IMG/VR virus record: IMGVR_UViG_3300027900_000013 | Span: 1 to 26,510 of that record | Length of the DNA: 26,510 nt | Reading direction: 5' to 3' (one strand) | DNA from: a virus | Part shown: in pieces, positions 3,927-23,900 of the stretch | How positions within the stretch are numbered: the stretch's first letter is position 1 | Layout: each line of letters starts with the position of its first letter | Position numbers and translations under genes: made by a program | Notes under the pieces: model-generated | Told to the model about the DNA's origin: nothing | Database searches by the model: none | The model's input: the letters and a program-made list of their open reading frames with translations, nothing else

Positions 3927-5204
3927 TTAGTATCCTGCTACGTCGTCAGTGGGCTTCCACTCGTCGTAAACGTCGGGACCGTCCATCCAAGGATCGGCCA
4001 ACTGGTCGATGTACGCAACCGCGTCTAGTAAGTCATCGTGAGCCAGCGGCGAGGGGAAGTCCTCAGCCTGCTCAAAAAATTCCTTGTTCCACGGTCCACG
4101 TACAACTTGGATTCGACCTTTCTCCGCGCGACCTTGGATTGCCCACGTAATACGGTCGGTTTTCTTGTTATTTCCGTGGGTGAGGTCGTCAACGGTGAAA
4201 AACGTTCCAAGTCGCTGCATTTCGTCGGTGAGATAAGGCAAAACGGCGTTTTTCGCCATTCCTTTCTCGATTCCGATGCGTACCGGGCGGTAATCCCGGA
4301 ACGCTTTAACGATTCTGAGCGCAGTTTCGCGCGTATCCCACTGGCCGTGTATGATTTCCTCAATGCACCACCCGCCAACGTGGTTGAAAACGACCGCAAT
4401 CGCGTGATCGTCCAGTCGTTTGACCTTCCTACCGCCCTCGACAGCCTCAAATCCGGCCAAGTCGATAGCGATGTAGTAGTCTCCGATGTCCGGGCGCTTC
4501 TCTCGGATGGGAAACATATCCCTACGGAGCAGTACGCCAGCTCCGCCCTCGAATGAAGCCTCGTATTCCTGCTTGAACCGGTCGTTTGACAGCTCCGCCT
4601 TGGCGGATGCTATCTCGGACTGGGGCAGGAACGGGTTCTCGGACGACGGGAAGTGCCAACATTTCCACTCCCCCGCTATGTCCTTCAACGCCCGCTGGTA
4701 GATGGTCCAGAAGTGGTTCTTCCCATCGGGGGTCCCGATGAACAGTGCGCCACCTTCGACCCTCGTAAGCGCCGGTCGTATGATGAGGTCCCAGACCTCC
4801 TCCTTCATGAAGGCGAACTCGTCGAGGACCACATACGACAAACCGACACCCCGAAGGGTATCCGGTCTGTCCGAGCCCTTGATGCAGATGCGGCGTCCGT
4901 TGAGGAGTTCCAGCTCCCCCGTGTTCTCCCACTTGTTCTTGATGAGGGAGTGCCCAAGCTCTTTGAGCAGGGGCCACAGGATCTTCTTTCCTTGATCGAA
5001 CGTGGGAGCTACGTAGTAGACCTCCTCAAGAGCAAGGTCCACACGAACGCCGTCCGTGCGGATCTTCGAGGTCTTGGCGGCCTCTACGAACAGCGTGACG
5101 GCAGCGAGGTAACTCTTGCCGAAACGTCGTCCAGCGGCTACTACCTTGTACCGAGCGTCGTCGTAGAAGATTTCCGCCTGCCGTTCGTGCAGGCTAATCT
5201 TCAT
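3927..5204 (-). CDS. terL: Terminase large subunit (packaging ATPase and nuclease)
   Basis: This 425-residue protein has the full two-domain plan. The ATPase has Walker A AGRRFGKS (residues 24-31), Walker B VVLDEF (125-130) and a coupling motif GTPDG (157-161). The nuclease has an RNase H-like fold with D248 (IAIDLAG), E313 (RIGIEKG) and the HDDLLDA acidic pair D390/D391. The length is normal to slightly short for the family, and no key residue is missing. It drives genome translocation into the prohead and cuts the concatemer. Its start ATG 5202-5204 overlaps the upstream small gene by 4 nt. Packaging type (cos, pac or terminal repeats) cannot be read from the window. Confidence 0.95.
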   Translation of the reverse strand: MKISLHERQAEIFYDDARYKVVAAGRRFGKSYLAAVTLFVEAAKTSKIRTDGVRVDLALEEVYYVAPTFDQGKKILWPLLKELGHSLIKNKWENTGELELLNGRRICIKGSDRPDTLRGVGLSYVVLDEFAFMKEEVWDLIIRPALTRVEGGALFIGTPDGKNHFWTIYQRALKDIAGEWKCWHFPSSENPFLPQSEIASAKAELSNDRFKQEYEASFEGGAGVLLRRDMFPIREKRPDIGDYYIAIDLAGFEAVEGGRKVKRLDDHAIAVVFNHVGGWCIEEIIHGQWDTRETALRIVKAFRDYRPVRIGIEKGMAKNAVLPYLTDEMQRLGTFFTVDDLTHGNNKKTDRITWAIQGRAEKGRIQVVRGPWNKEFFEQAEDFPSPLAHDDLLDAVAYIDQLADPWMDGPDVYDEWKPTDDVAGY

Positions 5205-5831: not shown

Positions 5832-6237
5832 TTTCAATTACCTCTGCGTCTACGACGTTGATCTGCTGGACTGGACGGATGGTCTGGTTGCCGGAGGAGG
5901 TGATGTTGATTTCAACCTTCTCGACTCCGTTCTCTTGATCTTGGTTCTGCTTACTCATATGGAGTTCAAGCAGGAGCTTAATCATGGCCCGATCCCCGTC
6001 TTGGGCCAGCTCCACCGCCTTCTTCAAGACGGAGAGCATGTCTGGTGCCGCAGCTTCCCTAAGCTGGACTTCTAGAGATTGACGTAGGAGAGTAATCCGG
6101 TTCTTAGAGCCCTTAGGTCTTCCACTAGGGTTGCCGGATTGCCCTTCTACGAATCTCCCGTTGTCCCTCTCCCGGACGGCCGTGGCCGCTTCTTCTACGG
6201 GGGGCGCTACAACGAGCTGATTAGTACTGTCTTCCAC
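5821..6237 (-). CDS. Small terminase-like protein with GNPSGRPKGSKN motif
   Basis: The 138-residue product contains GQSGNPSGRPKGSKNRI at about residues 33-49, the signature of the DUF5681-type segment found in many phage proteins next to terminase genes. A helical region (LLRQSLEVQLREAAAPDMLSVLKKAVELAQDGD) follows, then an acidic tail. Small terminases bind the packaging start site and oligomerise through helical segments, and position four genes before terL fits. The start is GTG 6235-6237 behind AAGGA, overlapping the upstream gene by 17 nt. The small-terminase role is inference from context, and no classical helix-turn-helix is obvious. Confidence 0.5.
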   Translation of the reverse strand: MEDSTNQLVVAPPVEEAATAVRERDNGRFVEGQSGNPSGRPKGSKNRITLLRQSLEVQLREAAAPDMLSVLKKAVELAQDGDRAMIKLLLELHMSKQNQDQENGVEKVEINITSSGNQTIRPVQQINVVDAEVIENGS

Positions 6238-6907
6238 CTTTGTCCTTGAACCTCTGTAGCATCTCGTCGGCCTTCTTTAGGGCCTCGGCTAACGTCTCGT
6301 CGGTTTCCCGCTGCGGCTGGTAGGCCGAGGGCGGTATGTGCTTCGGGAGGGACCGGTACGGCCCATTCCCGATCACGTGGACAGGGATTTGGACATCGTT
6401 CCCGAACAGCTCCTTGATGGCTGTTACCCGGTGACGCCCATCGTGATTGATAATTTTGGGGGTGTTCCCAACCACATCGACCGTGAGGGTCGGTTGGCCG
6501 AGCTTCTTACCATCCGCCAGTCCCTTCTTGATGTAGTCGAGGGAGCGTTCGGAAGGCCGCGAGAGCGGCTCGGCAAGGTGCAGGTACTCGTCCGGGGTCA
6601 TGTAGTGGACGGCACCAAGGTGCTCAACGTCTTGGTTGTTCGGGACTGACCCGATGCCCTTCTCGGCATCGAACAGGTGGTCCATCTTCTTGCCGTACTT
6701 GGCGGCAACCTTCGCTGCCCCTATCCCGGCTATGCCGGGTACCAGACCGAGGGCCGCAAGCCCGAGCCCCTTCGGGTTCTGGTTGTCGGGGTTAGATACA
6801 TCCCCGACGAATCCGGCTACGTCCCCAACCCCCGGAGGGAGTGCCATTGAGGAAAGCGATAGCGCCTCGGATAGCTTCTTGAGTTGTGCGGGGGACAGTT
6901 TGAGCAC
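6221..6907 (-). CDS. ParB/sulfiredoxin-fold-like protein, first gene of leftward operon
   Basis: This 228-residue protein starts at GTG 6905-6907 with only a weak ribosome site. The N-terminal 65 residues have a Gly/Pro-rich pattern (LPPGVGDVAGFVGD...LGLAALGLVPGIAGIG) seen in large phage polyvalent or virion proteins. The C-terminal half holds INHDGRHRVTAIKELFG near residue 155, which matches the GRHR-type core of ParB/Srx-fold domains, preceded by LTVDVVG. In ParB this fold binds nucleotide; in phage relatives it may be a nuclease or kinase. The C-terminal helix is charged. No helix-turn-helix is seen, so it is not a complete ParB. It leads the structural operon. Confidence 0.5.
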   Translation of the reverse strand: MLKLSPAQLKKLSEALSLSSMALPPGVGDVAGFVGDVSNPDNQNPKGLGLAALGLVPGIAGIGAAKVAAKYGKKMDHLFDAEKGIGSVPNNQDVEHLGAVHYMTPDEYLHLAEPLSRPSERSLDYIKKGLADGKKLGQPTLTVDVVGNTPKIINHDGRHRVTAIKELFGNDVQIPVHVIGNGPYRSLPKHIPPSAYQPQRETDETLAEALKKADEMLQRFKDKGGRQY

Positions 6908-6944
6908 GGGCGGAATCCCATCTTAGGATAGGGGGCTACTCTGT

Positions 6945-6978
6945 GGGTCCAGCCTTCAAGGCTGGTTGACCTGTGATG
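6945..6978. promoter_or_regulatory. Hairpin element A, shared with 18948-18978
   Basis: GGGTCCAGCC (6945-6954), a 5-nt spacer and GGCTGGTTGACCTG form a perfect 6-bp stem (CCAGCC/GGCTGG). The same arms and flanks recur at 18948 with a different loop. Here it lies in the leader between the leftward promoter candidate and the first leftward gene. TACTCTGT directly precedes it on the plus strand, as a similar TACTCT precedes the second copy. Function is unknown. Confidence 0.55.
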
Positions 6979-6985
6979 TACCTCG

Positions 6986-7009
6986 GGGCCGCCCCCTAGG
7001 GCGGTGCCC
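6986..7009. promoter_or_regulatory. GC-rich hairpin in leftward leader
   Basis: GGGCCGCCC (6986-6994), a CCTA loop and GGGCGGTGCCC can form a nine-pair stem with a 2-nt bulge. There is no adjacent T tract on either strand, so a simple intrinsic terminator is unlikely. With the hairpins at 6949 and 7030 it makes the 5' leader of the leftward transcript heavily structured. Confidence 0.4.
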
Positions 7010-7029
7010 TACCCCCGTCCCCTCGGTAC

Positions 7030-7053
7030 GGCCGCTCACACGTTTTCGCGGCC
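7030..7053. promoter_or_regulatory. GGCCGC/GCGGCC inverted repeat next to leftward promoter
   Basis: Perfect 6-bp arms at 7030-7035 and 7048-7053 enclose a 12-nt loop containing ACGTTTTC. The right arm touches the promoter-like block at 7052-7068, so on the minus strand the structure sits at or just after the probable transcription start. Confidence 0.4.
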
Positions 7054-7091
7054 TATACAGAGTAAACGAACGGGAAGCTCAAATTATGCAT
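7052..7091 (-). promoter_or_regulatory. Candidate leftward promoter of the structural operon
   Basis: Read on the minus strand, ATGCATAA (7091-7084), a 15-nt gap and CGTTTACTCTGTATAGG (7068-7052) closely match ATGCATAA, 16 nt and CGTTTACTCTATATAAC at 18900-18940 on the plus strand. No convincing sigma-70 -35 is present. The pair is a good candidate for promoters read with the phage sigma factor encoded at 18258. The predicted leader to the GTG at 6907 is roughly 140 nt. Confidence 0.5.
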
Positions 7092-7101
7092 CTGTAATAT
7101 G

Positions 7102-7134
7102 AAATAGTTCGTATGTTAAACAAATAGTTTGTTT
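7102..7134. repeat. AT-rich direct and inverted repeats
   Basis: AAATAGTT occurs at 7102-7109 and again at 7122-7129, 20 bp apart. The second copy is part of a perfect inverted repeat, AAACAAA-TAG-TTTGTTT (7118-7134). This is the most AT-rich patch in the window and lies between the promoter candidate and the DnaA-box region. It could be an operator or a DNA-unwinding element. Confidence 0.45.
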
Positions 7135-7191
7135 GTTATATGTATGCTAACTGTCGTCGCAGATAACGCCCTGTAGTCAGGTTGGAGTCAA

Positions 7192-7249: not shown

Positions 7250-7402
7250 ACTATACATCCGACGAAAATTGCCCCGTTGTGCCCGTGAGGGCGCCGCCGC
7301 TGCTCAGGCCTGCGCACAGACGGGTGCCCCCCCTCGCGCGTTATGTCACGTGTTGCGCCGAAACTACACGCTGTTGCGTCAAAGCAACGCACTGGAATGG
7401 TG

Positions 7403-7419
7403 CGTTAACGGTTAACGTT
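7403..7419 (+). repeat. Dispersed palindrome copy 1 (G centre)
   Basis: CGTTAACGGTTAACGTT, intergenic, about 40 bp before the DnaA-box array. It contains the invariant 13-bp core GTTAAC-S-GTTAAC. Confidence 0.9.
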
Positions 7420-7457
7420 ACATAACATTGCACCAAAATGAATCACGCGAAAGGTCC

Positions 7458-7580
7458 TGTGCATAAACTGTGGACAATCGTGTGGATAAACTGTGAACAA
7501 CTCATTCAAACGGGGGGTATGTTGTTTTAAAGCAACCTTACAGATCAATGAGTTACACTTGTGGATAACTCTGTGGATAA
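7458..7580 (+). other. DnaA-box array, candidate replication origin
   Basis: Six 9-mers match the DnaA box read as TGTGGATAA. The first group is TGTGCATAA (7458), TGTGGACAA (7469), TGTGGATAA (7481) and TGTGAACAA (7492), with starts 11, 12 and 11 bp apart. The second group is TGTGGATAA at 7560 and 7572, 12 bp apart. Three are exact consensus. All point the same way and are helically phased. Between the groups, AACTCATT (7499) and AATGAGTT (7547) form an inverted repeat around the near-palindrome GTTGTTTTAAAGCAAC (7521-7536). This is the layout expected of a DnaA-dependent or iteron-like origin. Confidence 0.6.
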
Positions 7581-7727
7581 CTCGCGCCACGCCACGATCG
7601 CGCCTCGGGGCAGGCAAGCGTAGCGGGGAGGGTGCTGCGCGTCGCCACGGGCCTGTAATGCGGCCCAGAGCAAAGGCCGCGACCGTGACCGGGCGCCCGC
7701 GAGCGCACGGGCGCGTCGGGCGCGTGG

Positions 7728-7744
7728 TGTCGGAATACTTTACA
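7728..7744 (+). repeat. 17-bp direct repeat, first copy
   Basis: TGTCGGAATACTTTACA is repeated with one change at 7817-7833, 89 bp away. Both copies lie upstream of the extended -10 promoter at 7858. The TGT...ACA ends suggest partial dyad symmetry and a regulator site. Upstream, 7690-7727 is very GC-rich with repeated GGGCGC units. Confidence 0.5.
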
Positions 7745-7816
7745 CACGTAACCTATTGATTCATATAGGTATTGTGCCAAATGCCACCAATAGTCAAGCA
7801 CCACACATCACCTAAC

Positions 7817-7833
7817 TGTCGGGATACTTTACA
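7817..7833 (+). repeat. 17-bp direct repeat, second copy
   Basis: TGTCGGGATACTTTACA ends 24 bp before the extended -10 at 7858, so a bound activator or repressor would touch RNA polymerase at this promoter. Confidence 0.5.
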
Positions 7834-7837
7834 TTTC

Positions 7838-7866
7838 TTGCATTGTTCGGTGGTACCTGTCATAAT
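7838..7866 (+). promoter_or_regulatory. Extended -10 promoter of the first rightward gene
   Basis: TGT-CATAAT (7858-7866) is an extended -10 with five of six -10 matches. TTGCAT at 7838-7843, 17 bp upstream, is a weak -35. A start near 7873 would give a leader of about 270 nt before the ATG at 8145. Palindrome copy 2 begins about 35 nt after the -10. Confidence 0.5.
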
Positions 7867-7900
7867 GGGCATCGTAAGGTATTGATTTCAAACGGAATCG

Positions 7901-7917
7901 CGTTAACGGTTAACGTT
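7901..7917 (+). repeat. Dispersed palindrome copy 2 (G centre)
   Basis: CGTTAACGGTTAACGTT, in the transcribed leader just downstream of the promoter at 7838-7866. Confidence 0.9.
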
Positions 7918-7945
7918 GGCACGGTTCCTGCATTGTTCCACATGC

Positions 7946-8049
7946 GCCCCGCACCAATTCGCGGGGCAGGGTACCGGAACAGGACGGGTACCTAGACCGA
8001 TCTTTAACAATGCACCACACGCGAACCGCGCCCCGCAAGGGCCGCGCGG
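7946..8049 (+). promoter_or_regulatory. Structured leader of the 8145 gene
   Basis: Two inverted repeats stand in the leader: GCCCCGC/GCGGGGC (7946-7952 and 7961-7967, 8-nt loop) and CCGCGC/GCGCGG (8026-8031 and 8044-8049). Neither is followed by a T tract. GGGTACC occurs twice between them. The leader may control translation or mRNA life, but no known riboswitch is recognised. Confidence 0.35.
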
Positions 8050-8144
8050 GAACCGTGTGATCTTCGCGTGGCGACTAGAGCCGGATGCCTGCTACGCGGA
8101 GCCTAGAAAATCCGGCACAATCCACTACATTGAAAAGGTGATTT

Positions 8145-8828
8145 ATGACCACGGAAAATACTGTCATCGTGTCCGCCTCCTTGATCGAACTGCGCGCCTT
8201 TGGTGCCGGGTCTTTCGACGCGTCGCGCAAGGCTAGCAAGGCCTCGGAGCATTTGGTGCTCGCGGCCATCCTCGGGGCGGATCATTTCGAGGATACGGTC
8301 AAGGCCTTCTATGCGGAGATCCGCGCGAACGAGCGCGGCCTTGCCAAGAAGGTCGGGGCCGAGTCAGCGAAGGATGGCGACGGGTACACGGTACCCGGTT
8401 CGATCCGCGCTCAAGTGTCGCAGGTACTCCGGGCCGTCCGGTTCGGAGTTGACTTGGGAACCGCTGACGCGCCGCGCGGCATCACGGATATCCGCAAGGA
8501 TACCGGCGAAGCTGCCGAAGCTGCCGAGGCCGCGAAAACTCCGAAGGAACTGACAGCCGACGACGCGCTGCGGATGGCGCTGGTTGACGGTCTTTCGGAT
8601 GCGATCAAGGCCGTGAAGGGCGCGGAGGGTACGGTGCTGGAGTCAATCAAGATCGCCACGCTGGAGTATGTCGGCAAGGTGCTGGCAATCCAGAGCAAGG
8701 CCGAAGCTGCGAAGGCGATGGACAAGGCCGAGACGGAAGCGAAGGCCGCACCGACTGCGGGTGGGATGCTGCCGAACGGCAAGGCCGCACGCCGGACCCG
8801 TTCGGAGGCGGTTGCCGCTGCCGCGTAA
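8145..8828 (+). CDS. Ala-rich protein, first rightward gene, unknown function
   Basis: A 227-residue protein begins at ATG 8145 behind AAGGTG. It is rich in Ala, Lys, Glu and Asp, has no Cys or Trp, and looks almost entirely helical after residue 120, with Ala/Glu/Lys repeats such as GEAAEAAEAAKTPKELT. The N-terminal 100 residues (VIVSASLIELRAFGAGSFDASRKASKASEHLV) look more globular. The C-terminus is basic then Ala-only. It has its own promoter, long leader and strong terminator, so it is a separately controlled, probably abundant early product. Candidates are a DNA-binding or host-takeover protein, but no family is recognised. The stop overlaps palindrome copy 3. Confidence 0.8.
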   Translation: MTTENTVIVSASLIELRAFGAGSFDASRKASKASEHLVLAAILGADHFEDTVKAFYAEIRANERGLAKKVGAESAKDGDGYTVPGSIRAQVSQVLRAVRFGVDLGTADAPRGITDIRKDTGEAAEAAEAAKTPKELTADDALRMALVDGLSDAIKAVKGAEGTVLESIKIATLEYVGKVLAIQSKAEAAKAMDKAETEAKAAPTAGGMLPNGKAARRTRSEAVAAAA

Positions 8829-8845
8829 CGTTAACCGTTAACGTT
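8827..8845 (+). repeat. Dispersed palindrome copy 3 (C centre)
   Basis: Full 19-bp AACGTTAACCGTTAACGTT. Its first two bases are the end of the TAA stop of the 8145 gene, and a terminator follows 9 bp later. Confidence 0.95.
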
Positions 8846-8854
8846 CGACCATTT

Positions 8855-8888
8855 GGGGCCGGTCCTTCGGGACCGGTCCCTTTTTTTT
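8855..8888 (+). terminator. Rho-independent terminator
   Basis: An 11-bp stem (8855-8865 with 8870-8880, one G-T wobble) capped by a TTCG tetraloop is followed by eight T. This is a near-ideal intrinsic terminator that isolates the 8145 gene from the operon starting at 9034. Confidence 0.95.
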
Positions 8889-8998
8889 GCCTCGCGGATG
8901 CGCACGTTCCTTTCTTTTGATCTTCGCACGCGATAGGGGTTCTCTCTATTCTCGCGAAAACTCCCATGCTCTAAGTTTGAATCCTCTCTCTTGATTGT

Positions 8999-9027
8999 TT
9001 GACTTTTCTTGATAGATGTGCTATAAT
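8999..9027 (+). promoter_or_regulatory. Strong sigma-70 promoter
   Basis: TTGACT (8999-9004), a 17-bp spacer and TATAAT (9022-9027) preceded by TGC give five of six -35 and six of six -10 matches plus an extended -10. It is the best host-type promoter in the window and would start the long rightward early operon near 9034. The preceding 8889-8998 is pyrimidine-rich and shows no gene. Confidence 0.9.
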
Positions 9028-9064
9028 GGGTGTGTAAAGTGGGAATTCGGGTGATGAAAGCGTA

Positions 9065-9083
9065 AACGTTAACGGTTAACGTT
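9065..9083 (+). repeat. Dispersed palindrome copy 4 (G centre)
   Basis: Full 19-bp AACGTTAACGGTTAACGTT starting 38 bp after the -10 of the strong promoter, inside the leader and upstream of the ribosome site of the 9108 gene. Confidence 0.95.
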
Positions 9084-9107
9084 CGCTCTGACAAAGGAGA
9101 AGGTTGT

Positions 9108-9353
9108 ATGGACGTTAAAAAGGTCTCGGTTCCTCTGACCTTGGGCCAGTGGGAAACCATCTACTTATCCCTCAAGACGGGGGCGCAAGACTCCCGAGAG
9201 TCGGCAGCCAAGAGCCGGGAGTACGTGCCCGACACCGTGGACTGCCCCGAAGATACGTTCGCTGGATTGCAGGCCGAAGCAATGGAAGAATGGGCCGACG
9301 AATGCGATGAACTCGGGGACCTCGTCGCCAAGCTCTCCGCCCTGTTCGAGTGA
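9108..9353 (+). CDS. Small acidic protein, unknown
   Basis: An 81-residue protein with a strong AAAGGAGAAGG ribosome site 5' of ATG 9108. The N-terminus (VPLTLGQWETIYLSLKTG) resembles a short strand-helix; the C-terminal half is strongly acidic and helical (EAMEEWADECDELGDLVAKL). No domain is recognised. As the first gene after the strongest promoter it should be expressed very early. Small acidic early phage proteins often bind and inhibit host enzymes, but that is only a possibility here. Confidence 0.75.
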   Translation: MDVKKVSVPLTLGQWETIYLSLKTGAQDSRESAAKSREYVPDTVDCPEDTFAGLQAEAMEEWADECDELGDLVAKLSALFE

Positions 9354-9365
9354 GGAGTCGCCACT

Positions 9366-9467
9366 ATGAAAATGTCCGACCCATTCTACTGGTTCCTAGT
9401 CTGGTCTGTCTGGATACTGGCAGCCATGCTGTATTTCATTCACTTGACTGACGGCACTTTGCGTTAA
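9366..9467 (+). CDS. 33-residue single-span membrane peptide
   Basis: ATG 9366 follows GAGGAG by 7 nt and the frame encodes one hydrophobic segment rich in Trp, Phe and Leu (FYWFLVWSVWILAAMLYF) with a short polar tail. The TAA stop (9465-9467) is provided by palindrome copy 5. It probably sits in the inner membrane; role unknown. Confidence 0.55.
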   Translation: MKMSDPFYWFLVWSVWILAAMLYFIHLTDGTLR

Positions 9468-9476
9468 CGGTTAACG
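9462..9476 (+). repeat. Dispersed palindrome copy 5 (G centre)
   Basis: CGTTAACGGTTAACG; it supplies the last codon and stop of the 33-residue membrane peptide. The right outer arm has one change (GCT instead of GTT). Confidence 0.9.
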
Positions 9477-9480
9477 CTCC

Positions 9481-9852
9481 GTGCGGTACACAACAAGAAC
9501 CGGCCGGTCTATCCGGCACGGTAAAACGACGCGTGCAAGTCGGGGGGTCAAGAGGCCGAACGTAAAGCCTCTCCCCCTGCACTTGCAATGCCACCCGCAG
9601 GCACTCCACCGGATGCCTGTCCACCCCAACTGTGCTACATACGACCCGGAAACGGGCGCGATGCTTGCGCTCATGCCGTACCAAATTCTCTACGCCACTG
9701 GACGGTGGCTATCTTCGGATTGCCGCCTGCCCGTGCGCGTGGAAGTCGTGAACGAGGGAACGTGGTACCACCACGACCTCACGTTCGCGTTTGCGTGGAA
9801 GAAGGCTGCCGAAAAGGCAGGGTTAACCGTTAACGTGTTCAACAAGGAGTGA
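9481..9852 (+). CDS. Hypothetical protein with LTVNV C-terminus
   Basis: The frame runs from GTG 9481 for 123 residues; ATG 9613 would give 79. Neither start has a clear ribosome site, so the start is uncertain. The N-terminal 40 residues are very basic (many Arg, Lys, Pro) and could be untranslated. The C-terminal part (YQILYATGRWLSSDCRLPVRVEVVNEG) looks like a small beta-rich domain followed by a WYHHDLTFAFAWKKAAEKAG helix. The last residues, LTVNVFNKE, come from palindrome copy 6. No family is recognised. Confidence 0.5.
   Translation: MRYTTRTGRSIRHGKTTRASRGVKRPNVKPLPLHLQCHPQALHRMPVHPNCATYDPETGAMLALMPYQILYATGRWLSSDCRLPVRVEVVNEGTWYHHDLTFAFAWKKAAEKAGLTVNVFNKE
9822..9836 (+). repeat. Dispersed palindrome copy 6 (C centre), intragenic
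   Basis: GTTAACCGTTAACGT within the 3' end of the 9481 gene, read as LTVNV. The left outer arm has two changes. Confidence 0.9.
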
Positions 9853-9856
9853 AGCT

Positions 9857-10072
9857 ATGTCCATCGAAAGTTCTGTGAACCCATCTATCTCGGCTAACGA
9901 CGCCGTGAAGGTGGACAGCCTGTGTGCCCGAATCCTCGGGGACTTGGGCTCAGTCCATATGCGTATCTCCGTGGATACGCCCATGCCCACCGAGCTGGTG
10001 ACGTTGCGCCAGTACGTGAGGAGCGTGCAGGACGCGGTGCGCGACCGCTGCCCTTCCGCTTTCTTCAAATGA
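9857..10072 (+). CDS. Small hypothetical protein
   Basis: This 71-residue protein starts at ATG 9857 behind AAGGAG. It is predicted mostly helical (ANDAVKVDSLCARILGDLG, ELVTLRQYVRSVQDAVRDRC), soluble, and has two Cys. No family is recognised. Its stop shares the ATGA overlap with the next membrane peptide, so the pair is translationally coupled. Confidence 0.65.
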   Translation: MSIESSVNPSISANDAVKVDSLCARILGDLGSVHMRISVDTPMPTELVTLRQYVRSVQDAVRDRCPSAFFK

Positions 10073-10200
10073 TGCTCTGGCTTGAGACTGCGGGGAAACT
10101 CGCAGCTATCTTCGCGCTGATCCTCGTTGTTGCGGGAACAGCAATCTCAATTCTTGGGACCGTCAACGTACTGGTGGACCTTTTCACCAGAAGGAGGTAG
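10069..10200 (+). CDS. 43-residue membrane protein
   Basis: ATG 10069 overlaps the upstream stop. One long hydrophobic span (AAIFALILVVAGTAISILG, residues 12-30) lies between a short acidic N-terminus and a basic C-terminus ending RRR, which would stay in the cytoplasm. Size and topology would allow an accessory membrane or holin-like role, but no lysis genes are adjacent. Confidence 0.6.
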   Translation: MMLWLETAGKLAAIFALILVVAGTAISILGTVNVLVDLFTRRR

Positions 10201-10201
10201 C

Positions 10202-10420
10202 ATGTCCGGTGATCGAATCCGTCGGTACTCATGGCAGCGCGTGCGTCGCCCTCGGGGGTGGGCCGTGCTCATGTTCTCGGGTGCTCCGACGGCATCCCAC
10301 TCTTACCCCAAAAGTGGGGGTTATAGGTCGGTCCGCGCCCACATTCACGAACTGCGTGCTAAAGAGGCGGCCGAGTTTGAAACGTTAACCGTTAACGAAG
10401 GAGTTGAGTCAAATGGCTAA
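10202..10420 (+). CDS. Small basic protein with LTVN near the end
   Basis: A 72-residue product starts at ATG 10202 behind AGAAGGAGG. The N-terminus is Arg-rich (DRIRRYSWQRVRRPRG), then comes a Ser/Gly/Tyr segment and a helix (VRAHIHELRAKEAAEF). Palindrome copy 7 encodes LTVN eight residues before the end, and the ribosome site of the next gene lies inside its last codons. No family is recognised; nucleic-acid binding is plausible from charge only. Confidence 0.6.
   Translation: MSGDRIRRYSWQRVRRPRGWAVLMFSGAPTASHSYPKSGGYRSVRAHIHELRAKEAAEFETLTVNEGVESNG
10381..10397 (+). repeat. Dispersed palindrome copy 7 (C centre), intragenic
   Basis: AACGTTAACCGTTAACG, in frame as TLTVN near the end of the 10202 gene and 16 bp before the next start codon. 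Confidence 0.95.
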
Positions 10421-11402
10421 CAGAAAGCCGATGAAGCGGCCGAATCTCCTGCCGCTTTTCCGCTACTTCTACGATCCGCGTAGGGCTGGCGACAACACTA
10501 CGGACGTGCGGACCTGCATAATCTCGTCGGGGTTCGGGTCGTTCGTTAAGCACATCGTAATGAACCCCGTGTACGGCACGTTCCAGTACAAATCGCTGGA
10601 CGGGAATTGCGCGGGGGTGATCGAGGGGGGCTTCCTGTGGCAGTACATGCACGACTTCTGCGGTGGGATTTTAGTGTCGTCGGCGTGGGCTTCGCTGGAA
10701 CATACCACTGCCCCCGGTGAGGACGAGTGGGGCGTTGGCCACTACTGGAGACGCGTACTTTGGGGAACCGCGGAGGGCAATAACTCGTCCGTCTGTGAAG
10801 ATATACGGAAGCGCGCGTTGCGCGCATCATGGCCAACGTGGGCTACCGTGGTACCAAGCGTGGCTCCGTACGTCGAGAACGAGGAAATGCGCGACTCAGA
10901 CGCGTTGCGCTTGATGCAGAACTCCGTGGCAGGGGCCATCCTCAGCACGGCACGTAGCCTTGGGCGCGGGGGGATCTTTGCCGCTGACCGCATGGAGCGG
11001 GCCGAGACACGGGCGGCAATGGAAAGAGCGGCGGCGCTCCCCCATTCCTATGTCAGTCTCCCGACGTATGGGCACTCCCCCCACTACACCACCCCCTCAG
11101 GGAACGCGCCTAGGGTGGGATCAATGGGTGGCCGAGAGTCCATGATCCACGGTGCGTGGAACGAGACCCTGTGCCGCAACACTGGCATGAAGGCGGGCAT
11201 GGTTCCTCCGTACATAAATCACAATTCGGGGAACCAAGTCGCCCTGCAATGGATCACCGTACATAGGTACACCGACCCCTCCCCAGTCCACCACACCGAC
11301 GATACGGGCAGCGCGTGGTCCCTGACGGGTCCGGGCAAAGAGTGTCTGCGCAGTCCACTCATCTACGATCTGCTGCCCCAGCAAGTGTTCCACAACGCCT
11401 AA
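10413..11402 (+). CDS. 329-residue protein of unknown function
   Basis: It begins at ATG 10413 with GGAG upstream and overlaps the previous gene by 8 nt. The protein has many Trp, Tyr, His and Cys, no membrane span or signal peptide, and looks like a folded enzyme rather than a structural protein. Distinct segments are DVRTCIISSGFGSFVKHIV near residue 31, CGGILVSSAWASLEHT near 84, and a C-terminal PYINHNSGNQVALQWITVHRY around 265. I cannot place it in a family. It lies directly before the amidoligase gene, separated only by palindrome copy 8, so it may be a further enzyme or the substrate partner of that cluster. Confidence 0.75.
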   Translation: MANRKPMKRPNLLPLFRYFYDPRRAGDNTTDVRTCIISSGFGSFVKHIVMNPVYGTFQYKSLDGNCAGVIEGGFLWQYMHDFCGGILVSSAWASLEHTTAPGEDEWGVGHYWRRVLWGTAEGNNSSVCEDIRKRALRASWPTWATVVPSVAPYVENEEMRDSDALRLMQNSVAGAILSTARSLGRGGIFAADRMERAETRAAMERAAALPHSYVSLPTYGHSPHYTTPSGNAPRVGSMGGRESMIHGAWNETLCRNTGMKAGMVPPYINHNSGNQVALQWITVHRYTDPSPVHHTDDTGSAWSLTGPGKECLRSPLIYDLLPQQVFHNA

Positions 11403-11416
11403 CGTTAACCGTTAAC
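11401..11416 (+). repeat. Dispersed palindrome copy 8 (C centre)
   Basis: AACGTTAACCGTTAAC overlaps the TAA stop (11400-11402) of the 329-residue protein and fills the gap before the amidoligase ribosome site. Confidence 0.95.
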
Positions 11417-11433
11417 ACGGTAAGGAGACGATC

Positions 11434-12267
11434 ATGCCGAGAATCACAATCGGTGCCGACCCCGAGTTCTTCATCCGAGACATGGACACGGGGCTGCCCG
11501 TTCCGATCTGCGGGCTGCTCGGTGGCACCAAGTCACAGCCTCTCGTAGTCGGCCACTTCGGGCTGCAAGAGGACAATGTGATGTGCGAGTACAACATCCC
11601 GGTGTGCACCGACACCATGAGGTACGCGCAGCACGTGCTGGGCGGAAGGCAGGCTGTGATGGACAGGCTGCACTCCCTATACCCGAACCGATACATGGAG
11701 GATCTCACGCCTTCCCGCCTGTTCTCCCACGCTATGTTGGAGAGCGATCAGGCGAAGATGTTCGGGTGCTCTCCCGACTTCGACGCGTACTCGCTTGGCC
11801 AAGCCAACCGGAGGATCGACCCGGCCGAGTTGGACGAGGCTCGCGGGGGGTGGAGGTTCTCGGGCGGGCACGTACACGTCGGGTTCCGCGACCTCATGCA
11901 GTTCGACATCCCGCCATATGTGGCAGCCCAGTTCGCTGATGTGTTCATCGGGCTGTACGCTGTGCAGTTCGACAAGCAGGGCAAGCGTCGGCAGTTCTAC
12001 GGAACGGCTGGCCGCTATCGCCCCACCCCGTACGGGATCGAGTATCGCACCCTCTCGAACGTGTGGACCTATCGCAACGACTACGCTGAAATGGTTGGGC
12101 ACTTCGCCATCCAGCTCGGGGCGTTCCTGTGTGGCAAGGAGCCACGGATCAAGAAGTTGTGGGCCGAGATCCCGTGGATGGACGTTAAGCGCGCCATCCA
12201 GACCGAGGATGTCGCTCTCGCACGTACTGCCATTTCCTACTGTCAGTCACTTGGATTGGAGATCTGA
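11434..12267 (+). CDS. phiEco32-like COOH-NH2 ligase (amidoligase type 2)
   Basis: The 277-residue protein has the family's landmark motifs: GADPEFF at residues 7-13, CEYN at 51-54, GGHVHVG at 144-150 and GIEYRTLSN at 201-209. These are acidic, His and Arg residues that in this glutamine-synthetase-like fold bind metal, ATP and substrate. The enzymes are predicted to join a carboxyl and an amine with ATP, making an amide or peptide bond. ATG 11434 follows AAGGAG. The gene heads a run of peptide-ligation enzymes that reaches 17145. Substrate is unknown. The length is normal and no key motif is missing. Confidence 0.85.
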   Translation: MPRITIGADPEFFIRDMDTGLPVPICGLLGGTKSQPLVVGHFGLQEDNVMCEYNIPVCTDTMRYAQHVLGGRQAVMDRLHSLYPNRYMEDLTPSRLFSHAMLESDQAKMFGCSPDFDAYSLGQANRRIDPAELDEARGGWRFSGGHVHVGFRDLMQFDIPPYVAAQFADVFIGLYAVQFDKQGKRRQFYGTAGRYRPTPYGIEYRTLSNVWTYRNDYAEMVGHFAIQLGAFLCGKEPRIKKLWAEIPWMDVKRAIQTEDVALARTAISYCQSLGLEI

Positions 12268-12269
12268 CC

Positions 12270-12344
12270 ATGCACCCTGTCATCTGGTTTGGGGTCGGCT
12301 TCTTAGTCGGCTTCGTCATCGTATACATCACCAACTGGAGGTAA
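12270..12344 (+). CDS. 24-residue membrane peptide
   Basis: ATG 12270 lies 2 nt after the amidoligase stop. The whole peptide is one hydrophobic span (VIWFGVGFLVGFVIVYI) with a short TNWR tail. Its last codons form the GGAGG site of the next gene, so translation may serve coupling. No ribosome site of its own is strong. Confidence 0.45.
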   Translation: MHPVIWFGVGFLVGFVIVYITNWR

Positions 12345-12349
12345 CACCA

Positions 12350-12760
12350 ATGCCCATTCGTGTATTCGTTTACGGCTCACTCAAGAATGGCCGAGGGAAC
12401 CACCGACTGCTAGCGCAGTCCAAGTTCCTCGGTAGGTGCTACATTGAGGGCAAGTTCAGGTTGCTCTCACTCGGCGGATACCCCGGCCTCGTCGCCTCCA
12501 GTAAGGTGAGCGATGGCAGGATCGTAGGGGAGGTCTATCAGGTCAACGAGGATACGTTGCAGACCCTCGACTGGCTCGAAGGGCACCCCCGGTACTACGA
12601 GAGGCAGAAGGTAGCGACCCAGTTCAAGAACGCGTGGGCGTACTTCTTGCCCGAGGAGTACTTGTCGAAAGGACTGCCGGATGCTGGCCCGTGCTGGCAC
12701 CCGACAGAGGACGAGAAGGAGTGGATGAAGGGGATCTTCAATGAATCTGCCTCATCCTGA
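12350..12760 (+). CDS. Gamma-glutamylcyclotransferase-like protein
   Basis: This 136-residue protein starts at ATG 12350 behind CTGGAGG. It shows the GGCT/AIG2 fold signature: YGSLK at residues 8-12, GGYPGLV near 42-48, GEVYQV at 60-65, and LDWLEGHPRYYER with the probable catalytic Glu at 77. Family members open gamma-glutamyl amines or peptides into 5-oxoproline and free amine. Beside two amidoligases it may trim, edit or release gamma-glutamyl adducts. An upstream in-frame extension reaches into the amidoligase gene but lacks a ribosome site and is rejected. Confidence 0.85.
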   Translation: MPIRVFVYGSLKNGRGNHRLLAQSKFLGRCYIEGKFRLLSLGGYPGLVASSKVSDGRIVGEVYQVNEDTLQTLDWLEGHPRYYERQKVATQFKNAWAYFLPEEYLSKGLPDAGPCWHPTEDEKEWMKGIFNESASS

Positions 12761-17145: not shown

Positions 17146-17375
17146 TTCACGCTAAGCGATACACCCCATCCAACGAAGATGGCGAAATGTTGCCCGATGA
17201 TGACGGGTACTGGTACACGGAAGATGACTACGACGCCCTCGCGGCGAGGCTGGCGGAGGCGGAGCGGTTACTCTGCCTTACTCGTTCATCTCTCGGCAAC
17301 CGCACGCCACTCCTGAATGCCGAAGTCGATTCTTTTTTGGTACAACCACTCACAGCGCAGGAGGACAAGCCATGA
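17142..17375 (+). CDS. Small acidic protein, Ea22-like style
   Basis: The ATG overlaps the ATP-grasp stop (ATGA). The 77-residue product has an acidic first half with DDDGYWYTEDDYDALAARLAEAERLL, a phrase resembling the Ead/Ea22-like accessory proteins of many phages: a Tyr/Asp stretch followed by a short coiled coil. Function of that group is not established. It starts a run of four similar small coiled-coil genes. Confidence 0.6.
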   Translation: MIHAKRYTPSNEDGEMLPDDDGYWYTEDDYDALAARLAEAERLLCLTRSSLGNRTPLLNAEVDSFLVQPLTAQEDKP

Positions 17376-18842: not shown

Positions 18843-18874
18843 CGTGCATAACTAAATTCATCGGAAAATCAAGG

Positions 18875-18893
18875 ACTTAAGTTCTGCTTAAGT
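18875..18893. promoter_or_regulatory. Perfect inverted repeat ACTTAAG-TTCTG-CTTAAGT
   Basis: It has 7-bp arms and a 5-nt loop, 33 bp after the sigma stop and just before the promoter-like block. There is no T tract, so an operator is more likely than a terminator. Confidence 0.5.
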
Positions 18894-19946: not shown

Positions 19947-20051
19947 TTGGACCAAAGAGATAAAATGCTGAACATAGTCTGGGCGCTGGCAGGGATCGTG
20001 GTAGCGGTGATGCTCGCCCTCACTATCCGTGCTCTGGTATCGGTGGGATGA
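19947..20051 (+). CDS. 34-residue membrane peptide before primase
   Basis: TTG 19947 is 7 nt after AGGAG; ATG 19965 is an inner alternative. One hydrophobic segment (IVWALAGIVVAVMLALTI) forms most of the product. The stop overlaps the primase start (ATGA), so it may mainly couple translation. Confidence 0.45.
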   Translation: MDQRDKMLNIVWALAGIVVAVMLALTIRALVSVG

Positions 20052-20860
20052 TCGGGAGTGGGCGCGTTCAGGTAGCGATGGAGGGAGCCAGCCTTGAGCG
20101 TGGCGAGTCCGTCCGCATGGTGTGCCCTTTTTGCAACGGAGGTTCGTCAAATGAGAAAAGTCTTTCGATCCATCACAATGAGGATGGAGCAATACTATTC
20201 TTCTGTCATCGGGATCGCTGCGGCGCTAAGGGCAAACTTGGTGGTGGGCTGTGGTCTGGTAATGCACGGCCTGAGCGTCGGGTGCACGCGCCTGTGGTCG
20301 TGGATCCGCAGGCATACATTGCCATATCGCCCGACATCGCCGAGTACGTTAGGCGTACATGGCACTTCGCCGAACTCCCCGTCTACTGGAAGTGGGACCC
20401 GCACCGACTCCGTGTGATGTTTCCGGTGTTCTCCCCGCTCTATGAGCGGAGGGGGTGGGTAGCGCGCAGCCTTGACCGCGAGTGCTATCCCAAGACGGTG
20501 ACGCAGAAGGAGGTACTTGACGAGCCTTGGCTGCATTGGCCTGAGTCCGCGAACGGCAAGAGCGTGTGGATCGTCGAGGACATACCGTCTGCGGAGAGGC
20601 TGTGTCGGACGCGCGAGCAGAGCGTCTGCGCCTTGATGGGAACGCATGCGTCCAACGATGTGAAAGAGGAGATCCTGATGACGGCTCGGGGGCGTCCCAT
20701 TATCGTTGCTTTGGATCGTGACGCTGTGGGAAAGAGCATTGCGCTAATGGACGAGCTGCGTATGCGTCACTCTGGGCCAGTCAATGTGTACGTGCTGGCT
20801 AAGGACATCAAAGACATGACCGCGAGGGAGTTGACTGAGTGTCTGAAAAACGGTTACTAG
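20048..20860 (+). CDS. DNA primase (CHC2 zinc finger plus TOPRIM)
   Basis: This 270-residue protein carries a CHC2-type zinc site CPFC (26-29) with CHRDRC (53-58), then a TOPRIM domain with WIVEDI (Glu177) and ALDRDAVGK (Asp223, Asp225). This is the minimal set for template-directed RNA primer synthesis. Unlike T7 gene 4, primase and helicase are separate polypeptides, with the helicase gene overlapping by 22 nt. It would prime the lagging strand copied by the polymerase at 22047. No essential residue appears missing. Confidence 0.85.
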   Translation: MIGSGRVQVAMEGASLERGESVRMVCPFCNGGSSNEKSLSIHHNEDGAILFFCHRDRCGAKGKLGGGLWSGNARPERRVHAPVVVDPQAYIAISPDIAEYVRRTWHFAELPVYWKWDPHRLRVMFPVFSPLYERRGWVARSLDRECYPKTVTQKEVLDEPWLHWPESANGKSVWIVEDIPSAERLCRTREQSVCALMGTHASNDVKEEILMTARGRPIIVALDRDAVGKSIALMDELRMRHSGPVNVYVLAKDIKDMTARELTECLKNGY

Positions 20861-22047
20861 CATCTTGCATCAAGAGTAGAACCGCATACGACAGGATTGC
20901 TGACCACCTAGAGGACGTAGGACTGACCGAGCAGGGGAAGATGATCCTTACCCATGTTGATCGGTACTACACACGGGATGCGCAGGCGAGGGCCGTAGAT
21001 CCAGACTTGCTGATGTCGGGGATCGCACGAGAGTTGCCCAACCCCAAGCACCACCGGGTACTGGGGGAGATTGTTGCGTCTGTGATGGCTGAGGATGTCT
21101 CGCCCGAGAACGTCGTGGCGGACTACTTGGCCACGAAGCGGGAGAAGGTGGGGAACCAGTTGGCAACGATGCTGGCTGCGGGCAGGCCACCGGGGGAGGT
21201 AGCCCCCCTTGTCGAGCGGTATCAGGAACTTCTAACGACCGAAACAATTGAGAAGGAGGAGACTCGTGTACTCTGCGGAGAGTCCGTTACAAAGCTGGTG
21301 GCGGCGCGGAATCGAGAAGGCGGCCTTATCCAAGTCTTTCCTCAAGCGCTCAATGAGCGGCTCGATGGGGGACTTCTGCGAGGGCACCACATGGTTGTAT
21401 TCGCGCGTCCCGAGGTTGGCAAGACCCTGTTTGCCGTCAACGCAATCTACGGATTCCTCAAGCAAGGACTCCGTACCCTCTACGTCGGGAACGAAGATCC
21501 TATAGAGGACATCGTGCTGCGGGTGGTATCTAGACTGTCGGGCCTGACGCGCCACGAAGTCCTAGACGACCCGGAGACGGCTGACCGAATAGCTAGAGAG
21601 AAGGGGTACAACAACCTTGTCCTAGCGAGTCTGACGCCCGGCACGATCAAGGAGATTGAGGCGCTGGTGATAGAGCACAAGCCTGCGGTGGTGCTGACGG
21701 ATCAGCTACGTAACTTGCAGGTGGGGCAAGAGAACTTCACGAGACAGTTGGAGACGGCAGCGCAAGGGGTGCGTACGATTGGAAAGCGCCACGGGGCGCT
21801 CATGGTGTCGTTCACTCAGGCGGGAGACAGTGCAAGTGGCAAGTCTATTTTGGATATGGGTGATGTGGATAGTTCTAATACTGGCATCCCCGCTCAAGCG
21901 GACGTAATGGTGGGGATCGGGATGTCACGTGAGGACGAGACGATGGGGAGGAGAGTTCTATCCTTGCCAAAGAACAAGTCAGGTGGAAACCACGACTCGT
22001 TCCCGGTAAGGGTGGATCTGCAACGCTCCAAGATGGCATCGGCGTAA
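20839..22047 (+). CDS. DnaB-like replicative helicase
   Basis: A 402-residue RecA-fold helicase starts at GTG 20839 within the primase gene. The N-terminal 140 residues are helical and would contact the primase or form the collar. The motor has Walker A ARPEVGKT (189-196), Walker B VVLTDQL (284-290) and the sensor strand LMVSFTQAG (321-329), as in DnaB and T7 gp4 helicases. It unwinds DNA ahead of the polymerase as a hexamer. The Walker A has Ala-Arg-Pro-Glu-Val in place of the commoner Gly-Arg-Pro-Gly-Met. It ends with TAATG shared with the polymerase. Confidence 0.85.
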   Translation: MSEKRLLASCIKSRTAYDRIADHLEDVGLTEQGKMILTHVDRYYTRDAQARAVDPDLLMSGIARELPNPKHHRVLGEIVASVMAEDVSPENVVADYLATKREKVGNQLATMLAAGRPPGEVAPLVERYQELLTTETIEKEETRVLCGESVTKLVAARNREGGLIQVFPQALNERLDGGLLRGHHMVVFARPEVGKTLFAVNAIYGFLKQGLRTLYVGNEDPIEDIVLRVVSRLSGLTRHEVLDDPETADRIAREKGYNNLVLASLTPGTIKEIEALVIEHKPAVVLTDQLRNLQVGQENFTRQLETAAQGVRTIGKRHGALMVSFTQAGDSASGKSILDMGDVDSSNTGIPAQADVMVGIGMSREDETMGRRVLSLPKNKSGGNHDSFPVRVDLQRSKMASA

Positions 22048-23900
22048 TGGCTGCGTTAACGGTTAACGTTTGGGACAAGCTGCCTCGCTTCGTGAGGGAG
22101 CCTGACCCTAACATCTACCTGACGGGGTCTCCGTTGTTTCTCGACTTTGAGACGACCAACCTAGATAAGGGCGATGCACGCAACAAGCAGAATAGGATCG
22201 TGCTGTCGTGCTGGCAGGAGGGGTGGGATGGGCCACTCGTCCATAAGTGGGGCGGGGAGTACGAACTAGATGACCTGTGTGATGCAGTCACTAGGGCGGA
22301 CTTCCTCGTAGCACACAACGCCAAGTTCGAGTTGAAGTGGCTGCAACGGTGCGGGGTGTCAATAGATAACCTACTGGTCTACGACACCATGCTGGCTGAG
22401 TACGTGATAGGGGGAAACCGGTGGAAAACTTCGCAACTCTCCTTGCAGATGTGCGCCGAGCGACGAGGGCTAGGATCCAAAGGCAAAATCGTGTCCGCCA
22501 TGATGAAGGCGGGCGTACCAACAGAGGACATACCGACACAATGGTTACTCAAGTACTGCGAGCAAGACCTGCGCCTCTCACTATCTCTGATGAAGCGACA
22601 ACTACAGGAGGTAGAGGGGACGCGACTATTGCCCGTGATCTATTCGCGCGCGTTACTATGCGCGACCCTAGCGGACTTAGAGCAGAACGGAATGAGGCTC
22701 TCCGAGGACTTAATCTCAATGACTTCCTCACTGGAATCTCAGCTCCGGGAGTTGGAGTCGAGAGGCAATCGGTTGGCCCAAGGGGTGAACTTGGGGTCCC
22801 CGAAGCAGATGGGGGCATACCTCTACGACCAGCTAAAGTTCTCTGAGCCCACGATTCGGCGGGGCAGGAAGGTACTCCCCGACCGAACGGCCTCGGGTCA
22901 GCGCAAGACCGACAGCGATACGATAGCCGAACTTGAGTGCCGCACGGAGGAGCAACGGGTATTCAAGGCCCTCTACATGGAGGCGAAGGAGGTAGGCCAG
23001 CAGTTGTCAAAGTATCTGAGGAAGTTCGTGGAGTGTCTCACCGACGCGGGCGGTGTGCTGTACGCCAACTTCAATCAGATGCAGACATCAACTCAACGGC
23101 TGTCGTCCTCTGGAGCGGAGTACAAGGTACAGTTCCAGAACTTCCCTCGGGCGTACAAGAAGTTCTTTCGAGCCAAGCGGGACGGGTGGTTGATCGGGGA
23201 GTGCGACGGAGCGCAGATCGAGTTCCGGGTAGCGGGTCATCTAGGCAAAGACCCTCAGGTGAAGGCGGACGTTAAGGGGAAGGTCGATGTTCACGCGTTC
23301 ACAGCAGAGACGCTTACAGGTGCAGGACAGGAGACTGATCGACAGGGGGCCAAGGAGCATACCTTTAAGCCCCTCTATGGAGGATCGTCTGGAACCGAAG
23401 CAGAGCAAACCTACTACCGAGCCTTCAAGGACCGCTACAAAGGAGTGGCGGACGCACAAGCCCGGTGGATTGACCGAGTCCTAGCCAACAAGAAGCTGGA
23501 GACTGAGTGGGGGCTGGTGTACTACTGGCCGGACACGCGGATGGATAGCACGGGGTATATAACCAACACTACCTCCATCTGCAACTACCCGGTCCAAGCG
23601 CTCGCGACGGCAGAGATCATACCGCTCGCGCTGGTCTGTATGTGGCACCGGCTCAAGCGTATGCCTGAACTGCGGATGGAGTTGGTGAATACGGTACACG
23701 ATTCGATAGTGGCGGAGTTCCCGCCCGAGGAGGAGAGGGCGTTCCATGACCTAGCACGCACGTGCATGATCTACGACGCGGAGTACATGGTGAAGCGGCT
23801 GTACGACATTGACCTGTACGTACCCCTTGGCTGTGGCGTGAAAGTGGGGGACCGGTGGGGAACCGGAACCGAGACTAAGTACGAAAAGGAGAGCGAATAG
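22047..23900 (+). CDS. Family A DNA polymerase with 3'-5' exonuclease
   Basis: 617 residues, size and layout like T7 gp5. Exonuclease: Exo I D33 and E35 (FLDFETTNLD), Exo II HNAKFE (90-95) with Glu where Asp is common, Exo III Y170/D174. Polymerase: motif A D387 (CDGAQIEFRV), motif B R432, K436, F440, Y444 (RQGAKEHTFKPLYG) and motif C HDS at 551-553 rather than the usual HDE. F440 matches Phe762 of E. coli Pol I, the type linked to virulent phages in surveys of virioplankton. The start codon is followed at once by palindrome copy 12, which encodes residues 4-8 (LTVNV). Confidence 0.95.
   Translation: MAALTVNVWDKLPRFVREPDPNIYLTGSPLFLDFETTNLDKGDARNKQNRIVLSCWQEGWDGPLVHKWGGEYELDDLCDAVTRADFLVAHNAKFELKWLQRCGVSIDNLLVYDTMLAEYVIGGNRWKTSQLSLQMCAERRGLGSKGKIVSAMMKAGVPTEDIPTQWLLKYCEQDLRLSLSLMKRQLQEVEGTRLLPVIYSRALLCATLADLEQNGMRLSEDLISMTSSLESQLRELESRGNRLAQGVNLGSPKQMGAYLYDQLKFSEPTIRRGRKVLPDRTASGQRKTDSDTIAELECRTEEQRVFKALYMEAKEVGQQLSKYLRKFVECLTDAGGVLYANFNQMQTSTQRLSSSGAEYKVQFQNFPRAYKKFFRAKRDGWLIGECDGAQIEFRVAGHLGKDPQVKADVKGKVDVHAFTAETLTGAGQETDRQGAKEHTFKPLYGGSSGTEAEQTYYRAFKDRYKGVADAQARWIDRVLANKKLETEWGLVYYWPDTRMDSTGYITNTTSICNYPVQALATAEIIPLALVCMWHRLKRMPELRMELVNTVHDSIVAEFPPEEERAFHDLARTCMIYDAEYMVKRLYDIDLYVPLGCGVKVGDRWGTGTETKYEKESE
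22054..22070 (+). repeat. Dispersed palindrome copy 12 (G centre), intragenic
   Basis: CGTTAACGGTTAACGTT begins 4 bp after the polymerase ATG, so a protein bound here could affect both transcription and, as mRNA, initiation of translation. Confidence 0.95.

What the first reader, a model, noticed from the sequence alone, without database searches (positions are those of the whole stretch)
7458..7580. Helically phased DnaA boxes in a phage with its own replisome
Six DnaA-box-like 9-mers, three exact, all same orientation, lie 11-12 bp apart in two groups around an inverted repeat. Phages with T7-type polymerase, primase and helicase usually do not need DnaA. Here host DnaA may open the first origin, titrate DnaA to disturb the host, or support a plasmid-like stage.
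Basis: partly seen in the sequence, partly recalled or inferred. Interest (0 to 1): 0.68.

Follow-up and report, generated by a model that had tools for sequence, protein, structure and literature searches.

The report
Phage slot of swappable host-regulator sites
The six DnaA-binding sites in this phage are real, and in related phages the same spot carries arrays of sites for other host regulators (sigma-54, Fur and probably LexA), so it looks like a swappable landing strip for host proteins rather than simply a replication origin.

Summary
Six same-strand TGTGGATAA-like boxes lie at 7458, 7469, 7481, 7492, 7560 and 7572 (three exact, one with two mismatches). Shuffled sequence never gave more than 1 exact or 2 near matches there. 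They sit in the non-coding gap between the late (-) and early (+) gene arms of a 26.5-kb IMG/VR phage contig with its own PolA-family polymerase, primase and helicase.

The array is not unique. Relatives found by their large terminase carry arrays of up to 11 phased boxes at the same junction, and those examined encode a T7-type replisome. In 87 distinct relatives the slot after a conserved block (TTTTGTGTCTGAG-N31-CCTCCCCCG) holds DnaA boxes (113 seen, 0.25 expected, none in flanks). Others carry sigma-54 -24/-12 sites (66 vs 0.15), Fur-like sites (22 vs 0.45) or LexA-like sites (21 vs 1.1). Phages with 85-96% identical terminases have swapped one class for another. This window also carries two copies of a 17-mer matching the PEP-CTERM/PrsR motif and a sigma-54-like site.

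A dedicated DnaA-dependent origin explains this poorly. Best reading: a modular array that captures host DNA-binding proteins, here DnaA. Whether it titrates, blocks or regulates is unproven.

The parts
7458..7466 (+). DnaA-box-like site 1, TGTGCATAA (1 mismatch)
7469..7477 (+). DnaA-box-like site 2, TGTGGACAA (1 mismatch)
7481..7489 (+). DnaA box 3, exact TGTGGATAA
7492..7500 (+). weak DnaA-box-like site 4, TGTGAACAA (2 mismatches)
7560..7568 (+). DnaA box 5, exact
7572..7580 (+). DnaA box 6, exact
7521..7536 (.). inverted repeat GTTGTTTTAAAGCAAC between the two box groups; similar copy at 7373-7388; binder unknown
6929..7022 (.). counterpart of the conserved junction block of the relatives (GGGTCCAGCC stem-loop ... 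CCTACCCCCGTCCCC at 7008-7022); L194 has CCTCCCCCG here
7728..7744 (+). 17-mer TGTCGGAATACTTTACA, fits the description of PEP-CTERM upstream motif 1 (predicted PrsR site), copy 1
7817..7833 (+). 17-mer TGTCGGGATACTTTACA, copy 2
7917..7931 (+). sigma-54-like -24/-12 site TGGCACGGTTCCTGC (one base off), about 84 bp after motif-1 copy 2, pointing at the early genes
   Evidence: spacing limits from PMC1569441
7403..7417 (.). CGTTAACGGTTAACG palindrome, one of 13 early-arm copies; possibly independent of the array
7901..7915 (.). CGTTAACGGTTAACG palindrome, second junction copy
3927..5204 (-). large terminase; the gene that links the window to the array-bearing relatives
6221..6907 (-). first gene of the late arm, left edge of the junction; unknown function
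8145..8828 (+). first gene of the early arm, right edge of the junction; unknown function
20048..20860 (+). DNA primase
20839..22047 (+). DnaB-like replicative helicase
22047..23900 (+). PolA-family DNA polymerase

Best explanation
The array is the DnaA version of a modular host-regulator-binding slot in the junction between the late and early arms of a lineage of podovirus-like phages. SHOWN: the boxes are real; the same slot in relatives holds arrays of DnaA, sigma-54, Fur-like, LexA-like or unassigned sites; the class is swapped between close relatives. INFERRED: host DnaA binds the phased boxes side by side, and the purpose is to catch and hold a host regulator. I think the likeliest payoff is sequestration. 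By generally known numbers (about a thousand or a few thousand DnaA per E. coli cell, not measured here), six boxes times about 100 phage genomes could drain DnaA from oriC and from DnaA-regulated promoters, stopping new host replication rounds while the phage copies itself with its own polymerase, primase and helicase. I put the umbrella claim (host-regulator slot, not a dedicated origin) at about 0.75, and the full chain including titration at the value given.
For: Box array far beyond chance. TerL relatives carry arrays 1.3-2.3 kb upstream of TerL: 12 of the 36 TerL loci counted as scorable carry an array or pair. In 87 distinct junctions: DnaA 113 vs 0.25 in shuffles and 0 in flanks; sigma-54 66 vs 0.15 and 0; Fur-like 22 vs 0.45; reversed-motif controls about 0. 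Slots without an assigned class are still repeat-rich: 7.3 repeated 8-mers vs 1.6 shuffled. Class swaps: DnaA (L240) vs a TGCAA array (L258) at TerL identity 95.9%, Fur-like (L254) at 88%, sigma-54 (L255) at 85%. 143 neighbouring intervals cluster at 11/12, 18-23 and 33 bp, 83% same orientation. The window junction itself has two PrsR-like motif-1 17-mers plus a sigma-54-like site; this 17-mer occurs only twice more in 4.0 Mb of fetched phage DNA, both in contigs of TerL relatives, upstream of terL. The phages encode no DnaA but do encode a replisome. Decoy transcription-factor sites do titrate regulators in E. coli (PMC7826281, abstract seen).
Against: No binding data. Fur is too abundant in E. 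coli (general knowledge) for 3 sites times 100 genomes to titrate it, so titration does not explain every class equally well; a roadblock or promoter role explains interchangeability as well or better. The window's array lies about 440 bp from its block, versus about 10-70 bp in the 35-kb clade, and its own sub-clade has no other proven array, so it may be an independent gain.
Confidence: 0.42

Rival explanations
1. DNA-terminus roadblock: the junction is at or near the physical genome end, and any tightly binding host protein (DnaA, Fur, LexA, sigma-54 polymerase) serves to stall DNA entry, shield the end or mark it for packaging. The class is free to change because only a bound obstacle is needed.
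For: DnaA boxes are reported among the features of the injection stop signal proposed for two-step DNA transfer (PMC13250531; T5-type phages by my own knowledge). T7-group phages carry phased, same-strand arrays at record ends, twice per record in some: Berlinvirus A7 (8 boxes at 22-147) and P483, Eapunavirus Eap1 (5 exact at 71-174), Klebsiella phage ZK1. VpV262's annotated terminal repeats and StenR_269's record ends lie in the same late/early gap. 5 of 10 near-full-length relatives' contigs end within 650 bp of the block.
Against: Ends of this lineage were never mapped; contigs may break at the slot simply because it is hypervariable. VpV262 and StenR_269 have no array.
Confidence: 0.25
2. 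Replication origin: host DnaA binds the boxes, melts nearby AT-rich DNA and lets the phage helicase load for the first round.
For: Same-strand phased boxes with an inverted repeat; AT-rich stretches at 7051-7160 and 7401-7560; GC-skew turning point near the gap; relatives lack a T7-type RNA polymerase (control), so T7-style priming is unavailable.
Against: The slot is filled by sigma-54, Fur-like or other arrays in phages with nearly identical terminases. L194, TerL 86%, lacks the boxes. The strongest AT-rich stretch is about 300 bp away. The skew change coincides with the switch of gene direction, so it proves nothing.
Confidence: 0.18
3. Promoter control: the sites let host state (DnaA, iron, nitrogen, SOS, exopolysaccharide signalling) gate the divergent phage promoters.
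For: The window has a PEP-CTERM-like promoter layout: motif 1 twice, then a sigma-54-like site, upstream of the first early gene. Sigma-54 sites are promoters by nature.
Against: Up to 9 sigma-54 sites in both orientations and 11 DnaA boxes exceed ordinary promoter design; no promoter was mapped, so the distance from array to promoter is unknown.
Confidence: 0.13
4. Chance cluster or relic of a captured host oriC.
For: TGTGGATAACTCTGTGGATAA is a common oriC-type string (own knowledge).
Against: Shuffles exclude chance; recurrence at the same junction in many relatives excludes a one-off capture.
Confidence: 0.02

Closest known systems
T5-type injection stop signal (ISS)
   Same: Repeats, inverted repeats and DnaA boxes, at the phage-host DNA boundary (PMC13250531).
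   Different: ISS phages are unrelated and only the DnaA kind is mentioned; no swapping of regulator class was found. Two-step entry is not known for this lineage.
Arrays at record ends of T7-group phages (Berlinvirus A7, P483; Eapunavirus Eap1; Klebsiella Molineuxvirinae)
   Same: Phased same-strand TTATCCACA arrays in non-coding DNA of phages with their own replisome.
   Different: Those phages encode a T7-type RNA polymerase; only DnaA-type arrays were looked at; different phage group. T7's first 1000 bp has none.
Bacterial oriC
   Same: Multiple consensus DnaA boxes with 11-12 bp spacing.
   Different: No adjacent unwinding repeats identified; in relatives the DnaA boxes are replaced by other regulators' sites.
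datA-type DnaA-titration site
   Same: A cluster of DnaA boxes that could hold many DnaA molecules.
   Different: Chromosomal; IHF-dependent ATP hydrolysis was not testable here.
PEP-CTERM upstream region (PrsR motif 1 + sigma-54 motif 2; Haft 2006)
   Same: 17-mer ending TTTACA, repeated, followed by a sigma-54-like site within the published spacing range.
   Different: Here it lies in a phage and precedes early phage genes; PrsR binding was not tested.

Membership tests
DnaA-box array | several near-consensus TTATCCACA sites beyond chance | tested here: met
DnaA-box array | binds DnaA | not testable with these tools
   needs footprinting or ChIP
DnaA-dependent replication origin | conserved between close relatives as an essential element | tested here: not met
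   slot lacks boxes in L194 and is filled by other site classes in near relatives
DnaA-dependent replication origin | AT-rich unwinding element next to the boxes | tested here: inconclusive
   60% AT around the boxes, 63-68% AT at 7051-7160, about 300 bp away; no 13-mer repeats noted
DnaA-dependent replication origin | replication starts there | not testable with these tools
   needs marker frequency during infection
Modular host-regulator slot (defined here) | same junction beside TerL/TerS genes and conserved block | tested here: met
   TerL homology and a block counterpart that aligns with L194; the window's block deviates (CCTACCCCCG) and the array is further away
Modular host-regulator slot (defined here) | different host-regulator site classes in relatives | tested here: met
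T5-type injection stop signal | lies at the DNA boundary where entry pauses | not testable with these tools
   ends unmapped; indirect hints
PEP-CTERM/PrsR-sigma-54 promoter | 17-nt motif 1 ending TTTACA, 32-92 nt spacer, -24(GG)/-12(GC) motif 2 | tested here: inconclusive
   two motif-1-like copies and a sigma-54-like site at spacer about 84 nt; published logo not readable here

The most novel reading that the evidence does not exclude
A lineage of phages keeps, at a conserved spot between its late and early genes, a rapidly exchangeable array of high-affinity sites for host global regulators (DnaA, sigma-54, Fur, probably LexA, PrsR and others), a DNA-only weapon or docking device that targets a different host protein in different phages.
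Probability: 0.6. Interest if true: 0.9.

Novelty: categorically new. Interest (0 to 1): 0.8.

Why it matters
Phage counter-host functions are usually sought in proteins. A non-coding slot whose content switches between sites for DnaA, sigma-54, Fur and others would be a host-targeting element that gene annotation misses. It gives a direct test of whether phages titrate host regulators with their own DNA, and may show which regulator matters in which host. It also explains the DnaA-box puzzle without invoking a DnaA-dependent origin.

Tried and rejected
Chance cluster: rejected by shuffles. Named close relative: no megablast hit among phage records; the nearest by polymerase, StenR_269 (40%) and VpV262 (38%), have no array. 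Vibrio breoganii phages 1.157.O and 1.167.O, hit by TerL, proved to be distant phages without arrays. Idea that boxes replace a missing T7-type RNA polymerase: the polymerase is absent from the 12 records tested (control works), but T7-group phages with arrays do have it, so it is not a general rule. GC skew is confounded with gene direction. Literature searches for phage-borne arrays of host-regulator sites found nothing on point; the library is open-access only. A T7 end sequence that came to mind was discarded; the fetched T7 record was used.

Full report
OBSERVATION. Six TGTGGATAA-like 9-mers lie on the + strand at 7458, 7469, 7481, 7492, 7560 and 7572; three are exact and the one at 7492 has two mismatches. 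Spacings are 11, 12, 11, 68 and 12. The whole window has three exact boxes (0.1 expected), all here. In 2000 shuffles of 7401-7650 the maximum was one exact and two near matches, against three and five observed. The inverted repeat GTTGTTTTAAAGCAAC lies at 7521-7536, with a similar copy at 7373-7388.

SURROUNDINGS. The window is a 26,510-base IMG/VR record. The array is in a gap of about 1.2 kb between a late arm on the minus strand (terminase, portal, capsid) and an early arm on the plus strand. The early arm encodes a Toprim primase, DnaB-like helicase, PolA-family polymerase and 5'-3' exonuclease. There is no close named relative.

RELATIVES. A scan with an alignment of large terminases brought in 80 viral contigs. 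Counting loci with an array or pair, plus those with at least 3 kb of upstream DNA and none, 12 of 36 have one, 1.3-2.3 kb upstream of TerL, with up to 11 boxes. Array-bearing relatives encode a fused Toprim/DnaB primase-helicase, a PolA polymerase and a gp2.5-like single-strand binding protein. On the TerL tree the array label needs at least nine gains or losses, and the window is the only array-bearer in its 12-row clade. L194 (TerL 86%) aligns with the window junction and has no DnaA box, although it keeps a PrsR-like 17-mer.

THE SLOT. In the relatives the array follows a block TTTTGTGTCTGAG-N31-CCTCCCCCG with nearly fixed 53-55 bp length. A pattern scan gave 87 distinct junctions with at least 220 bp of slot. 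Motif counts in the slot, with shuffled mean, early flank and late flank: DnaA 113 (0.25; 0; 0), sigma-54 66 (0.15; 0; 0), Fur-like 22 (0.45; 7; 0), LexA-like 21 (1.1; 2; 0); reversed motifs were about zero. 46 slots carry at least two sites of one class. The other 41 are still repeat-rich, 7.3 repeated 8-mers against 1.6 in shuffles. DnaA intervals cluster at 11/12, 18-23 and 33 bp. Closely related phages have different classes: L240 DnaA vs L258 TGCAA-type at 95.9% TerL identity, L254 Fur-like at 88%, L255 sigma-54 at 85%.

THE WINDOW AGAIN. The window's block is degenerate (CCTACCCCCGTCCCC at 7008-7022), and its array is further from it. The same gap holds two copies of TGTCGGRATACTTTACA (7728, 7817) and a sigma-54-like site at 7917. 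This fits the PEP-CTERM cis-regulatory layout: a 17-nt motif 1 ending in TTTACA, sometimes repeated, then a spacer of 32-92 nt, then a -24/-12 motif (PMC1569441). The published logo could not be read, so this is a fit to the description. The 17-mer occurs only twice more in 4.0 Mb of fetched phage DNA, both in contigs of TerL relatives (L194, L222), upstream of terL.

OTHER PHAGES. Independent arrays occur at record ends of T7-group phages: Berlinvirus A7 and P483, Eapunavirus Eap1 (five exact boxes at 21-30 bp spacing) and Klebsiella phage ZK1. A 2026 paper mentions DnaA boxes in the proposed injection stop signal of two-step DNA transfer (PMC13250531). VpV262 and StenR_269 have their record ends in the same late/early gap, and 5 of 10 near-full-length relatives' contigs end within 650 bp of the block. 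This hints at a terminus but could be an assembly effect of a hypervariable slot.

MECHANISM. A dedicated DnaA origin predicts conservation of DnaA boxes; instead the class is swapped. Capture of a host DNA-binding protein explains all classes. Titration is my first choice for DnaA and sigma-54 on dose grounds; a bound roadblock near the genome end explains interchangeability at least as well; promoter gating is plausible for the PrsR/sigma-54 part. None is shown. Absence of a T7-type RNA polymerase in the lineage (control) means host polymerase probably does the transcription, which fits dependence on host regulators.

VERDICT. Observation confirmed; interpretation partly supported. The DnaA array is one instance of a swappable host-regulator slot that I could not find described.

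Noticed in passing
window 7403-25627: 13 copies of the odd palindrome CGTTAACSGTTAACG (some one base off), all in the gap and early arm and none in the late arm; several lie in frame inside genes, giving LTVN peptides (e.g. polymerase N-terminus MAALTVNVWDK). Looks like operator or dispersed-repeat sites of an unknown DNA-binding protein.
   Followed up: partly
window 7728-7744, 7817-7833, 7917-7931: PEP-CTERM/PrsR-like enhancer motif twice plus a sigma-54-like site before the early genes; suggests a proteobacterial host with exosortase-linked exopolysaccharide regulation.
   Followed up: partly
L276:22-147, L277:2257-2382, L289:71-174, L290:19-198: Phased TTATCCACA arrays in T7-group phages (Berlinvirus A7, P483, Eapunavirus Eap1, Klebsiella phage ZK1), at or near record ends.
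   Followed up: partly
L315, L364, L387, L258 slots: 11-12-bp phased TGCAA-type arrays (AATGCAACGCA) in the same slot; no regulator assigned.
   Followed up: no
L336, L405, L353 and L358, L380, L409 slots: Other repeated motifs (AAACAAACA..TTGTTTGTTTT; CATACCGAGTATC) in the slot, unassigned.
   Followed up: no
window 11434-17145: Cassette of amidoligase-like, ATP-grasp, gamma-glutamylcyclotransferase-like and glutamine amidotransferase-like genes, with relatives in L002 and partly in StenR_269; may build a modification.
   Followed up: no
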